From positions 62,001 through 126,000 of the forward strand of contig CAJOGI010000002.1 in assembly GCA_905234075.1 (NCBI GenBank): 64,000 nt of DNA, read 5' to 3'. The stretch comes from an uncultured Synergistales bacterium. Its GTDB lineage: Bacteria > Synergistota > Synergistia > Synergistales > Aminobacteriaceae. Each line of letters starts with the position of its first letter. The first letter of the stretch is position 1. Shown one piece after another: positions 12,415 to 16,635 of this stretch. The notes beneath the pieces were generated by a model. The model did no database searches. It saw only the letters and a program-made list of their open reading frames with translations, and was not told the DNA's origin. The position numbers and the translations under genes are program-made.

Positions 12415-12443
12415 TTGACATCTTCAATGAACATCGCTAAAAT
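12415..12443 (+). promoter_or_regulatory. Strong sigma-70-type promoter for the zinc-ribbon/SPFH cluster
   Basis: TTGACA at 12415-12420, a 17-base spacer, then TAAAAT at 12438-12443. Transcription would start near 12450, about 70 bases before the first gene. It is one of the few promoters in the window with a perfect -35. Confidence 0.8.
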
Positions 12444-12520: not shown

Positions 12521-13105
12521 ATGGTGAACGTTATCTGCCCCAAGTGTCCAAACTGCGGTGCGCCCGTTGAAAACGACGTTAAACGCTGCGAATATTGCAA
12601 TTCTCCGATTATAATCACGTCCTTTGCGGATTCTTTTCAGCTACCCGACATCAATAAATATACTTCGGCTTATAAAGGTGCTTTGACTTCTGCGCCTGAC
12701 GACCCAAATTTGAACGACGCTATAGGCTTCTGCTATATGCGCCTGAAAATGTACAGCCAAGCGCGGACATGTTTTCAAAAGGCCATTGACGGAGGTCTGA
12801 TAAACGCCGATACATTTTTTTACACGGCTGTGTGTCTGCTTGACGGGAAAAAAGCCTTTGTTGCTAAACGCCCAACGATAGATAAAATTCAGGAACTTAT
12901 CGAAGCCGCCCGCGCCATTGAAGATAAAGGCATTTACGCATATTTTCATGCTTACATTAAATTCGATTATTTCAAGCGGAAATCTTTAATCACGAGTCCG
13001 AATTACGTTGAACTTTTGAGGGAAGCTCAAAGGCTTGGCGTTTCGGAACATGACATCGGGATTCTATTTGACCTTTTGAGAGTTGAAAGGCCAAGTGAAT
13101 TATAA
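12521..13105 (+). CDS. Zinc-ribbon protein with TPR-like repeats
   Basis: N-terminal zinc ribbon with CPKCPNCGAPVENDVKRCEYC (shortened: paired Cys at about residues 6-12 and 27-30), of the kind seen in small ribbon proteins encoded beside SPFH proteins. After residue 45 there are helical repeats with TPR character (DPNLNDAIGFCYMRLKMYSQ, then ARTCFQKAIDGG). No signal peptide or membrane helix is present, so it is cytosolic. It is first in a four-gene cluster behind a consensus promoter. I cannot name a substrate; a regulatory or scaffolding role for the downstream SPFH protein is inferred only from position and the shared zinc ribbons. Confidence 0.7.
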   Translation: MVNVICPKCPNCGAPVENDVKRCEYCNSPIIITSFADSFQLPDINKYTSAYKGALTSAPDDPNLNDAIGFCYMRLKMYSQARTCFQKAIDGGLINADTFFYTAVCLLDGKKAFVAKRPTIDKIQELIEAARAIEDKGIYAYFHAYIKFDYFKRKSLITSPNYVELLREAQRLGVSEHDIGILFDLLRVERPSEL

Positions 13106-13134
13106 AAATTTTTTTGAAAGGCGATAAAAGTTTT

Positions 13135-13815
13135 ATGGATTATTCAAAAAATTTGCTTTATTTCACCGGTAAAGGCAGTACTGGTTTAATGATTTTTGGT
13201 GGAATTTTAGCACTCTTTGGAGTGATGTGTTTCGTCGATGTTAATGCACCTATTGCAGGATGTGTCTTGCTTGCATTAGGTATGTTGGCAGCCAGCGCAG
13301 GCGTGCAAAAATGGCCTGTGAGCGATTCTGATTATGACAAAGCGGTCAAAGATTATTTGTCAAATTTGAAGTCGATTGCGCTTGACAAACTCGGCGTTGA
13401 TGAAAGCGAAGTCAGCGAAGTCGCTCCGATTATTTTGGGCGGCTACGAATTTGAAGGCGTTGACCGTGTCAAAAAAGGCGAAGACGGAAAGTGGCGCAGT
13501 AACATTTATAAAGTCGTTGCGCTTTTCTTTTCACCGCACGAACTTCACGGCTACACGATGAGATTCAATACGCTCCGCGATGAAAAGACCGAAGGCACGG
13601 ACGTGTATTTTTATCAGGATATTGTTTCGGCTTCAACGTCATCATTAACAATCAAAACGACGGTTGATGGCAAGGAAATAACGGTCAATCCCGAAGCCTT
13701 TAAGCTCACAACAAAGGGCGGAACGTCTTTCACTGTCAACCTGTTAGACTCTGCATACGGCCAAGAATCAGTTAAGGCCATGCGTGCATTGTTACGCGAA
13801 AAGAAACAGGCTTAA
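13135..13815 (+). CDS. Two-helix membrane protein of unknown function in the SPFH cluster
   Basis: I chose the ATG at 13135 over a TTG 21 bases upstream, because GAAAGG sits between them. Two adjacent transmembrane helices are predicted at about residues 12-30 and 35-52 (TGLMIFGGILALFGVMCF; GCVLLALGMLAASAGV). They are followed by a soluble 170-residue domain of alternating strands, probably cytosolic. No known motif was recognised. It lies 29 bp after the zinc-ribbon gene and 100 bp before the coiled-coil gene, so it could be part of a membrane-associated complex with them. Confidence 0.65.
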   Translation: MDYSKNLLYFTGKGSTGLMIFGGILALFGVMCFVDVNAPIAGCVLLALGMLAASAGVQKWPVSDSDYDKAVKDYLSNLKSIALDKLGVDESEVSEVAPIILGGYEFEGVDRVKKGEDGKWRSNIYKVVALFFSPHELHGYTMRFNTLRDEKTEGTDVYFYQDIVSASTSSLTIKTTVDGKEITVNPEAFKLTTKGGTSFTVNLLDSAYGQESVKAMRALLREKKQA

Positions 13816-13816
13816 A

Positions 13817-13850
13817 AAAATCCCTAACTCCTCAAACTCCTCACTGCTTT
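13817..13850. repeat. Degenerate heptamer tract after a gene end
   Basis: Contains CCTAACTCCTCAAACTCCTC directly after the stop codon at 13815, a loose relative of the CTCCTAA arrays. Confidence 0.4.
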
Positions 13851-13862
13851 TTCTGCTCCTCT

Positions 13863-13871
13863 TGTTATAAT
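13863..13871 (+). promoter_or_regulatory. Extended -10 promoter before the coiled-coil gene
   Basis: TGTTATAAT 44 bases before the next ATG. AGGAG lies between, at good spacing. Confidence 0.5.
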
Positions 13872-13915
13872 TTTATAAAAAGAGAAAATAAATTTTAACA
13901 GGAGAATAAATTACC

Positions 13916-14719
13916 ATGCCCGACGAATTAGACCCGACTACGGCGCGGCTTGTTTCAGAGTTAAGCGCGAGTATTCTGCCGACGCTCTCAAAGTCTCTAA
14001 ACTCGGCCATACGTACCGAAGATTTTATAAATGCCATCGACCGTACTAACATGATTTCGCAGGATTTAAGAAATCAAATAGAAAAATCCATACGCTCCGG
14101 AATTGATGACAACCGCGCAGCAAGAAGCATGATGATGCAGTCAATGCGCAACGTATTTGATGAAATTTCGCTGTTGAGAAAAACTCTTGATAAAGTTCCC
14201 GAAGCCATTGACACGGCAATTAAAAATAATGCTCCCGAAGATAACAATACTCCCGAAATTTTAGCTGAGTTAGCGCGGATTTCTGAGTTAATCAACGAGC
14301 TTATAACCGGCATAAGAATGTTCAGCGAAGTTTACGCTCATGACAAAGAGCAAAAAGAAACAGAGGCCGTGAACGTTGGAACTTTCAGCGACGAGAACGC
14401 GACGAGGCTCGAAAAATTATTGAACTCATCGCTGCCGGGACTTGAAGGACTTGTCAAAGCTCACGAGAAAGCACAAAGCCATGAGCTTGAAGAATTTTCA
14501 AAGGAAATTTCAGCCCTTCATAAAGAAAACGACAAGGCAATAATTTTTAAGATTAAAGAAGCAATCAGCGAAGAACTGAACAAACATTCAGACGAAATAA
14601 TTTCGAGAATTAATGAAGAAATAGAAACCCGCAGCGAAAAAAATTTATTTTTTTTGAAAATCGTTGCAGGAATTTCGGGCGCGTGTTTGATTTTATCGCT
14701 GATTAAAATTTTTATATAA
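13916..14719 (+). CDS. Tail-anchored coiled-coil protein of unknown function
   Basis: 267 residues, almost entirely helical and highly charged, with long stretches of heptad-like spacing (about 20-160 and 170-245). A single C-terminal hydrophobic helix (FLKIVAGISGACLILSLIKI, about 246-265) marks it as tail-anchored with the coiled coil in the cytosol. No enzymatic motif was seen. It resembles methyl-accepting or scaffold-type helical proteins only in composition. Its place just before the SPFH gene suggests it helps organise the same membrane assembly (inference). Confidence 0.65.
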   Translation: MPDELDPTTARLVSELSASILPTLSKSLNSAIRTEDFINAIDRTNMISQDLRNQIEKSIRSGIDDNRAARSMMMQSMRNVFDEISLLRKTLDKVPEAIDTAIKNNAPEDNNTPEILAELARISELINELITGIRMFSEVYAHDKEQKETEAVNVGTFSDENATRLEKLLNSSLPGLEGLVKAHEKAQSHELEEFSKEISALHKENDKAIIFKIKEAISEELNKHSDEIISRINEEIETRSEKNLFFLKIVAGISGACLILSLIKIFI

Positions 14720-14753
14720 TTCTCAAGACCTAAGTAAGGAGGAAAAATAAAAA

Positions 14754-15866
14754 ATGGCAATAATTCAAATTGTTCAATGGGACGATAAATTAAATTCAAA
14801 TGACATTCTCGCTTGGCGTTACGTTGACAGCAAAAATCCCTCAAAGAGCGACGAGCTGGGCAACTGGACGCAGTTAATAGTCCGTGAAAATCAGGAGGCT
14901 ATTTTATTCCGTGACGGTCAGGCTCTAGATTTATTCAGAGCAGGAAGGCACTCTCTCTCGACTGATAATATTCCGATGCTGCGCAGGCTCATAAATATTC
15001 CTACGGGCGGCGAGAGTGCTTTCAAGGCCGGCGTGTGGTTCGTAAATAAAGTCAACGTTCTCGATATTAAATGGGGAACTCCCACGCCGATTTTGTTAAA
15101 AGATCCTGAGTATCAAATTCCGATTTATGTCCGCGCCTTCGGTCAGTTTGGTCTGCGTGTGAACGAGAGCAGGCAGTTTGTTTTGAAGCTCGCCGGAAAT
15201 AAAACCGAATTAACGCGAACGGATATTGAAAACTATTTTAAGGGTTTAATTCTTTCACGAATGGGCGATATGATTTCGACTTACATAGCCCACAAAAAAG
15301 TAAATATCTTCGAGATTAACGCATATCTTGAGGATATGTCGAACGAGGCCGTCGAAAAAATCCGTCCTGAGTTTATGAATTTCGGAATTGAACCGCTGAA
15401 TTTTTATTTTGGCTCGGTGAATATTCTTGACGACGACGAGGGCATTAAAAAACTCAAAGCCGCAATGAGCGAACGTGCAAGCATGAACGTTATCGGCTAT
15501 AACTATCAGCAGCAAAGGTCTTTTGACGTTCTCGAAGCAGCAGCGAAAAACGAGGGAGGTTCGTCATTAATCGGCGCAGGCGTGGGACTCGGCGCAGGAA
15601 TGGGAATGGCCGGGCCTATCGGTCAAATGGCCGCGCAGATGAACACGTATATAAATCCACAGGTTCAAGCCCAGCAGCCCTCGCAGCCTGTTGCCTCTTC
15701 AACTACAACTCCTAACTCATCTATCTGTCCCAACTGCGGTCAGCCTGTTATTAACGGTGCTAAATTCTGTCCCAACTGCGGAGCGAGGCTTGTATGTCCG
15801 AACTGCGGAAATGCTTTGATACCCGGCGCAAAATTCTGCCCGAACTGCGGAAATAAAATATCTTAA
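14754..15866 (+). CDS. SPFH (band 7) domain protein with two C-terminal zinc ribbons
   Basis: TAAGGAGG precedes the ATG. Residues about 30-270 have the SPFH-like layout of the YdjI / virion-core-like group: an early ESQA-type segment (VRENQEAILFRDGQALDLF), a beta-rich core and then helices with FGIEPLNFYFGSVNI. A glycine-rich linker (GAGVGLGAGMGMAGPIGQ) and a Gln/Pro/Thr-rich stretch follow. The protein ends in two zinc ribbons, CPNCGQ...CPNCGAR and CPNCGN...CPNCGNK. In Bacillus subtilis a comparable gene (ydjI) lies with a zinc-ribbon gene and is linked to membrane or phage-shock responses. The same pairing here, with a zinc-ribbon protein two genes upstream, supports a membrane-stress or scaffold role. 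Confidence 0.82.
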   Translation: MAIIQIVQWDDKLNSNDILAWRYVDSKNPSKSDELGNWTQLIVRENQEAILFRDGQALDLFRAGRHSLSTDNIPMLRRLINIPTGGESAFKAGVWFVNKVNVLDIKWGTPTPILLKDPEYQIPIYVRAFGQFGLRVNESRQFVLKLAGNKTELTRTDIENYFKGLILSRMGDMISTYIAHKKVNIFEINAYLEDMSNEAVEKIRPEFMNFGIEPLNFYFGSVNILDDDEGIKKLKAAMSERASMNVIGYNYQQQRSFDVLEAAAKNEGGSSLIGAGVGLGAGMGMAGPIGQMAAQMNTYINPQVQAQQPSQPVASSTTTPNSSICPNCGQPVINGAKFCPNCGARLVCPNCGNALIPGAKFCPNCGNKIS

Positions 15867-15873
15867 AAAAATC

Positions 15874-16635
15874 ATGATAATTTTTTGCAAGGATAAAATT
15901 CTTGTCAAAGGCCAAGCGTTTGAATTTGACGAAGATTATATAGTTGAACGCGGCAACATAAATATAATAAACACGTCAAAAAATCTTCCGGCTGTATGGC
16001 AGGTTATGCCGTCGTGGGCTGATGTTGACATGATAGAAAGTTTTTTGCACGGCGAGAAACTTATCTCAATCCGCGAAATGTTAGGCTTATGCGATAACGA
16101 AGGCAAAGCCTCAATCAGCAAGGCGTGGCAGTTCCGAAACTGGTTCAAAAATATTTCGTACTGCTCTCACTGCGGCGGAAGGCTCTCACCGAGCGAAAAG
16201 GATTTCGGCAGAATTTGCGATGAATGCGGAACGGAATTTTACGCCCCGATGTCTCCGGCTGTAATAACGGCGGTAGAAAAGCACGGAAAATTATTGCTTG
16301 CTCATAACGTTGCATGGAACAACGACAGGTACAGCATAATAGCAGGCTTTGTTGAACCCGGCGAAAGACTTGAGGACGCTGTGAGGCGCGAAATCCGCGA
16401 AGAAGTTTCGATCGAGGTCAAAAATATAAAATATTTCGGCTCGCAGACTTGGCCGTTTCCTAATTCATTAATGCTTGGCTTCACGGCTGAATACGATAGC
16501 GGAGAAGTAAAGCCCGACGGAGCAGAAATATCGCACGCTGATTTTTTCACGCCCTATGAAATTCGCAACATGAACATTCCCGACAGGGCAAGCATAGCGC
16601 GAAGGTTGATAGATAATTTTCTCGACACGTATTAA
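15874..16635 (+). CDS. nudC: NAD(+)/NADH pyrophosphatase (NudC family)
   Basis: Nudix hydrolase cleaving NAD(H), and in other bacteria NAD-capped RNA. A four-cysteine zinc ribbon (C97, C100, C115, C118) precedes the Nudix box at about 158-180 (GFVEPGERLEDAVRREIREE). The last part of the box reads EEVSI rather than the usual EEVGI. The SQTWPFPNS motif matches the SQPWPFPxS signature that separates NudC from other Nudix enzymes. Length is 253, usual for the family. No obvious ribosome site was seen, and it starts 7 bp after the SPFH gene. Confidence 0.92.
   Translation: MIIFCKDKILVKGQAFEFDEDYIVERGNINIINTSKNLPAVWQVMPSWADVDMIESFLHGEKLISIREMLGLCDNEGKASISKAWQFRNWFKNISYCSHCGGRLSPSEKDFGRICDECGTEFYAPMSPAVITAVEKHGKLLLAHNVAWNNDRYSIIAGFVEPGERLEDAVRREIREEVSIEVKNIKYFGSQTWPFPNSLMLGFTAEYDSGEVKPDGAEISHADFFTPYEIRNMNIPDRASIARRLIDNFLDTY

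What the first reader, a model, noticed from the sequence alone, without database searches (positions are those of the whole stretch)
12521..15866. Four-gene zinc-ribbon / membrane / coiled-coil / SPFH module
Behind one of the few full-consensus promoters lie a zinc-ribbon-TPR protein, a two-helix membrane protein, a tail-anchored coiled coil and an SPFH protein with two zinc ribbons. The set recalls the Bacillus ydjG-ydjH-ydjI group but with an added coiled-coil partner. It could be a membrane-domain scaffold or a stress or defence assembly; the middle two proteins are unrecognised.
Basis: inference. Interest (0 to 1): 0.52.

Follow-up and report, generated by a model that had tools for sequence, protein, structure and literature searches.

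The report
Composite SPFH membrane-platform gene cluster
The four neighbouring genes are real but were brought together recently from three separate sources; two of them (a zinc-ribbon/TPR protein and a membrane protein with a PH-like domain) appear to be a movable add-on to a membrane-scaffold protein whose closest partner gene lies elsewhere in the genome.

Summary
The four ORFs exist as described but are not a conserved four-gene module. D (SPFH, YdjI-type, two zinc ribbons) has one near-constant partner, a 4-TM membrane protein E: identical distributions (37 of 61 genomes have both, 24 neither), adjacent in 25 of the 32 genus genomes with both. In this genome E lies about 112 kb from D, outside the window. 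C is a genus-level tail-anchored helical protein normally divergent from hemC; it keeps its own conserved promoter element. A and B form a two-gene cassette, sporadic in Synergistota (B in 10 of 185 genomes), also in a Succinivibrionaceae MAG and Bacteroides. B has a PH-like domain.

I read A-B as an exchangeable accessory of an SPFH/4-TM membrane platform. PspA was not found in 37 genus genomes, so this is not the Bacillus PspA-YdjGHI system. Function is inferred, not shown. In one relative an SPFH-E pair sits beside a TIR-TPR protein, so an immune role is possible but unproven.

The parts
12415..12443 (+). Putative promoter of A-B (TTGACA-17-TAAAAT, 11 of 12)
   Evidence: a diverged counterpart in G092; match not beyond chance by itself
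12521..13105 (+). A: zinc-ribbon/TPR-like protein, 194 aa, soluble by hydropathy
   Evidence: four zinc-ribbon cysteines invariant in 5 of 5 aligned homologues
13147..13815 (+). B: two TM helices plus PH-like domain (about residues 73-222), 222 aa
   Evidence: no Pfam family
13863..13871 (+). Extended -10 element of C (TGTTATAAT), own promoter of C
   Evidence: TGNTATAMT in 20 of 24, TATAMT in 23 of 24 upstream regions
13916..14719 (+). C: all-helical protein with C-terminal membrane anchor, 267 aa; usually divergent from hemC
14754..15866 (+). D: SPFH (Band_7_1) protein with two C-terminal zinc ribbons, 370 aa, no TM helix; its usual partner E is outside the window (G000:C2:189908-190615)
15874..16635 (+). 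NudC-like NAD(+) diphosphatase right after D; not counted as part of the system
   Evidence: NCBIfam NF001299 219 bits over cut-off 158; also after D in G007 and G014

Best explanation
The locus is a recent composite. D is the soluble SPFH subunit of an SPFH/4-TM membrane platform: E (4 TM plus a helical part, encoded about 112 kb away in this genome) would dock D to the membrane, D would oligomerise under it, and D's zinc ribbons would hold client proteins. A-B is an exchangeable accessory pair: B is anchored by two TM helices and shows a PH-like adaptor domain to the cytoplasm, A is a zinc-ribbon/TPR adaptor, and together they tie a client or signal to the SPFH platform. C is a genus-specific tail-anchored helical protein that came to lie upstream of D by rearrangement. 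Shown here: gene content, distributions, neighbourhoods, C's conserved promoter element, the predicted PH-like fold of B. Inferred: docking, oligomerisation, client binding, topology, any contact between A, B, D and E, and a role in envelope upkeep or stress.
For: D and E have identical distributions in 61 genomes (37 both, 24 neither) and are adjacent in 25 of the 32 genus genomes with both. D has no TM helix, E has four. A and B stand side by side in 5 of the 10 phylum genomes with B, with traces of A beside B in 4 more. A and B share a gene cluster with an SPFH, a 4-TM and a YidD-like gene in Bacteroides finegoldii and G090, in different gene orders. Here the cassette lies one gene away from D. 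B's domain is PH-like. In Bacillus the soluble SPFH protein YdjI needs membrane partners for its localisation (PMC8581546, passages).
Against: A-B stands away from any recognised SPFH gene in G019, G092 and L033, and B does in G003, G005 and G016 within the stretches read. The cluster SPFH of G090 is a paralogue, 27% identical to D, and G090 has a closer D elsewhere. E resembles the Bacteroides 4-TM protein only weakly (probability 63). In the window's own lineage E has left D. No expression, interaction or phenotype data.
Confidence: 0.5

Rival explanations
1. The four genes are simply neighbours by rearrangement; A-B works on its own (or with another partner) and its place beside D here is chance.
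For: A-B or B has other neighbours in most of its genomes (rny-ymdB side in G003, G005, G092); C has its own promoter element; C and D came together only in a subset (G000, G007, G008, G014, G025, G094); the G000/G007 insertion counts as one event.
Against: Same gene set with SPFH in two distant places.
Confidence: 0.25
2. The four genes form one functional four-protein assembly including C.
For: Same strand, short gaps, C-D linked in six genomes.
Against: Only G000 and G007 have all four together among 61 genomes, and in G007 a RelB/YafQ pair separates C from D; C occurs in G003, G024 and G036 without D; C is absent from the Bacteroides and G090 clusters.
Confidence: 0.12
3. The cluster is an anti-phage or abortive-infection assembly.
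For: In G104 a TIR_2-TPR protein (TIR E 4.1e-11) stands directly before an SPFH zinc-ribbon gene and an E-like gene; a Vibrio plasmid SPFH gene lies about 3 kb from a TIR-annotated gene; A-B is patchy.
Against: No convincing PADLOC match for any member (best for C, 15.7 bits over coiled coil); no catalytic domain recognised in A, B, C or D; D-E is near-universal in the genus; no relative in phage records.
Confidence: 0.13

Closest known systems
Bacillus subtilis pspA-ydjG-ydjH-ydjI (PMC8581546 and PMC11237479, passages only)
   Same: SPFH Band_7 protein with C-terminal zinc ribbon, without TM helix, with membrane partners encoded nearby
   Different: No PspA in the genus; partner E is a 4-TM protein without a Pfam family, not a TPM protein; A has one zinc ribbon and TPR-like repeats, no TM and no NTF2-like match; B is PH-like
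SPFH (PF13421) proteins with SHOCT tails and bacterial PH domains (PMC3581485, passages only)
   Same: Same SPFH family with a small exchangeable C-terminal domain; G090's cluster SPFH has a weak SHOCT match; PH-like domains in bacteria that form rings are cited there
   Different: D carries zinc ribbons, the Bacteroides one GYF_2; B has no match to a Pfam PH family

Membership tests
YdjI-type SPFH protein (Band_7_1, PF13421) | SPFH domain over the curated cut-off plus C-terminal zinc ribbon | tested here: met
   149.6 bits against cut-off 24; two zinc-ribbon stretches
PspA-YdjGHI system | PspA encoded in the genome | tested here: not met
   PF04012: 0 of 37 genus genomes incl. own; 9 of 14 controls ring
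PspA-YdjGHI system | TPM-domain membrane partner (YdjH-like) next to the SPFH gene | tested here: not met
   No such Pfam match in A, B, C or E; the rest of the genome was not searched for TPM
PspA-YdjGHI system | YdjG-like protein: two zinc ribbons, NTF2-like domain, TM | tested here: not met
   A: one zinc ribbon, TPR-like repeats, no TM, no NTF2-like match
PH-like superfold (B) | PH-like beta-sandwich closed by a C-terminal helix | tested here: met
   AlphaFold2 model; VIA Z up to 9.1 (4tyz, 108 aligned, 3.6 A), 3hsa bacterial PH Z 8.3; rows nearly all PH/FERM/PTB; Foldseek alone had no E below 0.001
A-B/SPFH/4-TM/YidD-like cluster (Bacteroides, G090) | A and B in one cluster with an SPFH gene, a 4-TM gene and a second YidD-like gene | tested here: inconclusive
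   Window has A, B and SPFH; E is about 112 kb away; only one YidD in the genome
Known anti-phage systems | Match to a PADLOC-DB model | tested here: inconclusive
   Only weak matches; library of 2023

The most novel reading that the evidence does not exclude
A PspA-independent SPFH/4-TM membrane platform with exchangeable plug-in gene sets: A-B (zinc-ribbon/TPR plus PH-like membrane adaptor, with a YidD-like protein) in some lineages and a TIR-TPR protein in others, so that one scaffold serves envelope and immune functions by swapping clients recognised through small C-terminal tags (zinc ribbon, GYF, SHOCT).
Probability: 0.25. Interest if true: 0.7.

Novelty: new variant of a known kind. Interest (0 to 1): 0.42.

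Why it matters
YdjI-type SPFH proteins are widespread and poorly understood outside Bacillus (general knowledge). The identical distribution of D and a 4-TM protein without a named family gives a testable two-part core in a genus where PspA was not found. The A-B pair, shared by Synergistaceae, a Succinivibrionaceae MAG and Bacteroides, gives two unnamed families, one with a PH-like fold, and a predicted partner for them. No paper found here describes this gene set (searches; open-licence PMC papers only).

Tried and rejected
One operon behind one promoter: not the likeliest reading, because C has its own conserved -10 element. PspA-YdjGHI membership: rejected. A-B as phage genes: not found in 50,697 phage records and no convincing relative in viral contigs (one 27-residue zinc-ribbon match only). 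Solved relatives of D by sequence: only zinc-ribbon matches. C by structure: long helices, pTM 0.21; no fold search was run because the model has no defined fold. The Bacteroides 4-TM protein as an E orthologue: only weak support (probability 63), so called E-like. Transfer of A-B between species: A of G019 is 80% identical to the window's A while D of G019 is the least similar (67%) of the 28 full-length D matches within the genus; suggestive only, no tree was built. A survey of Bacteroidota or Bacillota was not possible: the genome centre must be a G handle and L033's genome was not held; in the plasmid collection only one record carries A-B. Other plasmid SPFH neighbours (Butyrivibrio, Vibrio, Paracoccus) showed no A, B or E homologue by blastp.

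Full report
Observation. A is a zinc-ribbon protein with TPR-like repeats, D a Band_7_1/SPFH protein with two zinc ribbons; B and C have no Pfam or NCBIfam family above cut-off. Hydropathy gives two helices in B (14-32, 35-53), one at the very end of C (249-267) and none in A or D. The promoter at 12415-12443 matches 11 of 12 positions; the window has two sites of 11 or more and block-shuffled windows have 2.0 on average, so the match is not beyond chance by itself. B's better start is the ATG at 13147.

Distribution. In the same 61 genomes (37 of the genus including the window's own, 24 others of the order), D matches 38; one of these (G036) is zinc ribbon only, leaving 37. C matches 34, all in the genus. 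B matches 7. A matches 10, of which 3 are full length (G000, G007, G019) and the rest fragments or zinc ribbons. Over 185 genomes of the phylum, A matches 22, of which 5 are full length (G000, G007, G019, G092, G090), and B matches 10. Of those 10, A stands next to B in 5; in G006 and G098 A's last residues lie at the contig start just before B, and in G016 a weak match does; G003 keeps a 34-residue remnant; in G005 none was found. In G019 B is broken into two ORFs.

Neighbourhoods. D is followed by E, a protein of 235-265 aa with four hydrophobic helices. E's distribution is the same as D's: 37 of 61 genomes have both, 24 neither. Inside the genus 32 genomes have both; by the coordinates, read by eye, they are adjacent in 25, apart in 4 (G000, G007, G014, G015) and undecided in 3 (G002, G005, G006; different contigs). 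In the window's genome E lies at G000:C2:189908-190615, about 112 kb beyond D and outside the window. C stands divergently beside hemC in 17 of 22 genomes whose C flanks I read, with A-B between in 2 more (G000, G007), and elsewhere in 3 (G015, G024, G025); the other C genomes were not read with flanks. C and D are adjacent in G000, G014, G094 and, by overlapping contig ends, G008, where E follows D; in G025 two small ORFs lie between C and D-E; in G007 a RelB/YafQ pair lies between C and D. A-B or B stands beside rny-ymdB-like and/or a polysaccharide-deacetylase-like gene in G003, G005, G016 and G092, and near the first pair in G019 (these gene names are my reading of the sequences, not family searches). 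So A-B most likely entered the hemC-C gap in the G000/G007 line.

Transcription. Upstream of C, TGNTATAMT is present in 20 of 24 distinct sequences and TATAMT in 23 of 24, about 39-55 bases before the start; single-base shuffles average 0.24 of 24 (maximum 2). The sequences are related and the region borders hemC, so the shuffle is a loose control. The element is intact in the window at 13863-13871. Thus A-B and C-D probably have separate starts.

Deeper links. In Bacteroides finegoldii (NZ_OY725907.1, listed as a plasmid but with housekeeping genes, so perhaps chromosomal) the order is HTH, B (37% over 171 residues), YidD-like, SPFH with GYF_2 (35% to D), a 251-aa 4-TM protein, A (46%). In G090, another genus of the family, the order is SPFH (weak SHOCT match at its end), 4-TM protein, A (47%), B (35%), YidD-like, then a protein with a TcaA NTF2-like domain. 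E's profile matches the G090 4-TM protein with probability 92 and the Bacteroides one with 63. G090 also has a closer D homologue (53% over 193 residues) on another contig, so its cluster SPFH is a paralogue. In G104 an SPFH gene with zinc ribbons and an E-like gene follow a TIR_2-TPR protein. A Succinivibrionaceae MAG (L033) has A-B with no SPFH gene recognised in the stretch held.

Structures. B's model (pLDDT 72.8, 7 sequences) has helices followed by beta-strands closed by a C-terminal helix. Foldseek gave no E below 0.001; the second look gave Z up to 9.1 with rows almost all of PH, FERM, PTB or DCP1 type over about residues 73-222, including a bacterial PH domain (3hsa, Z 8.3, 108 aligned, rmsd 4.2). 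The tool warns that Z under 8 can be a common arrangement; 12 of 997 chains reach 8. C is modelled as long helices with pTM 0.21.

Mechanism. PspA was not found in the genus (0 of 37). Passages of PMC8581546 report that YdjI is likely soluble and that its membrane foci are lost without YdjG or YdjH; passages of PMC11237479 describe YdjG as two zinc ribbons plus an NTF2-like domain and a TM segment and link YdjH to TPM. D is YdjI-like and has no TM helix; E is its constant companion. I therefore infer E as D's membrane dock and A-B as an optional add-on, joined to this kind of platform in at least two other gene clusters. The inference rests on gene order and domain make-up; nothing here shows contact or function.

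Literature. YidD with SPFH, 0 papers; SPFH with Bacteroides and zinc ribbon, 0; SPFH with TIR domain and zinc ribbon, 1, where SPFH occurs only in a reference; five of six terms on SPFH, zinc ribbon, operon, tetratricopeptide, bacteria, pleckstrin homology, 1, the same paper; at least two of SPFH domain, virion core protein, zinc ribbon, 5, judged by title and abstract start, one of them (PMC3581485) also read in passages; a wider defence query gave 106, of which 12 were listed and none opened. Only open-licence PMC papers are searched.

Noticed in passing
L176:5474-9352 (G104): A TIR_2-TPR protein (625 aa), an SPFH protein with zinc ribbons and an E-like 4-TM protein in a row: a possible immune version of the SPFH/4-TM pair.
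   Followed up: partly
L085:7369-7927 (G007): A RelB/YafQ toxin-antitoxin pair sits between C and D in the sister genome (97% identical D).
   Followed up: partly
L092:7945-8722 (G025): Two related small coiled-coil proteins with a hydrophobic end (131 and 120 aa) lie between C and D.
   Followed up: no
L142:1060-7121: Vibrio plasmid: SPFH gene followed by a protein with a weak zinc-finger match and, about 3 kb away, a TIR-annotated gene and a WD40-like protein.
   Followed up: no
window 61989-61962 (minus strand): The only 12-of-12 sigma-70-type site in the window (TTGACA-16-TATAAT).
   Followed up: no
window 15874-16635: NudC-like NAD(+) diphosphatase starts 8 bases after D; it also follows D in G007 and G014.
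   Followed up: no
L163:986-1819 (G090): A protein with a TcaA NTF2-like domain and hydrophobic stretches follows the YidD-like gene of the cluster.
   Followed up: no
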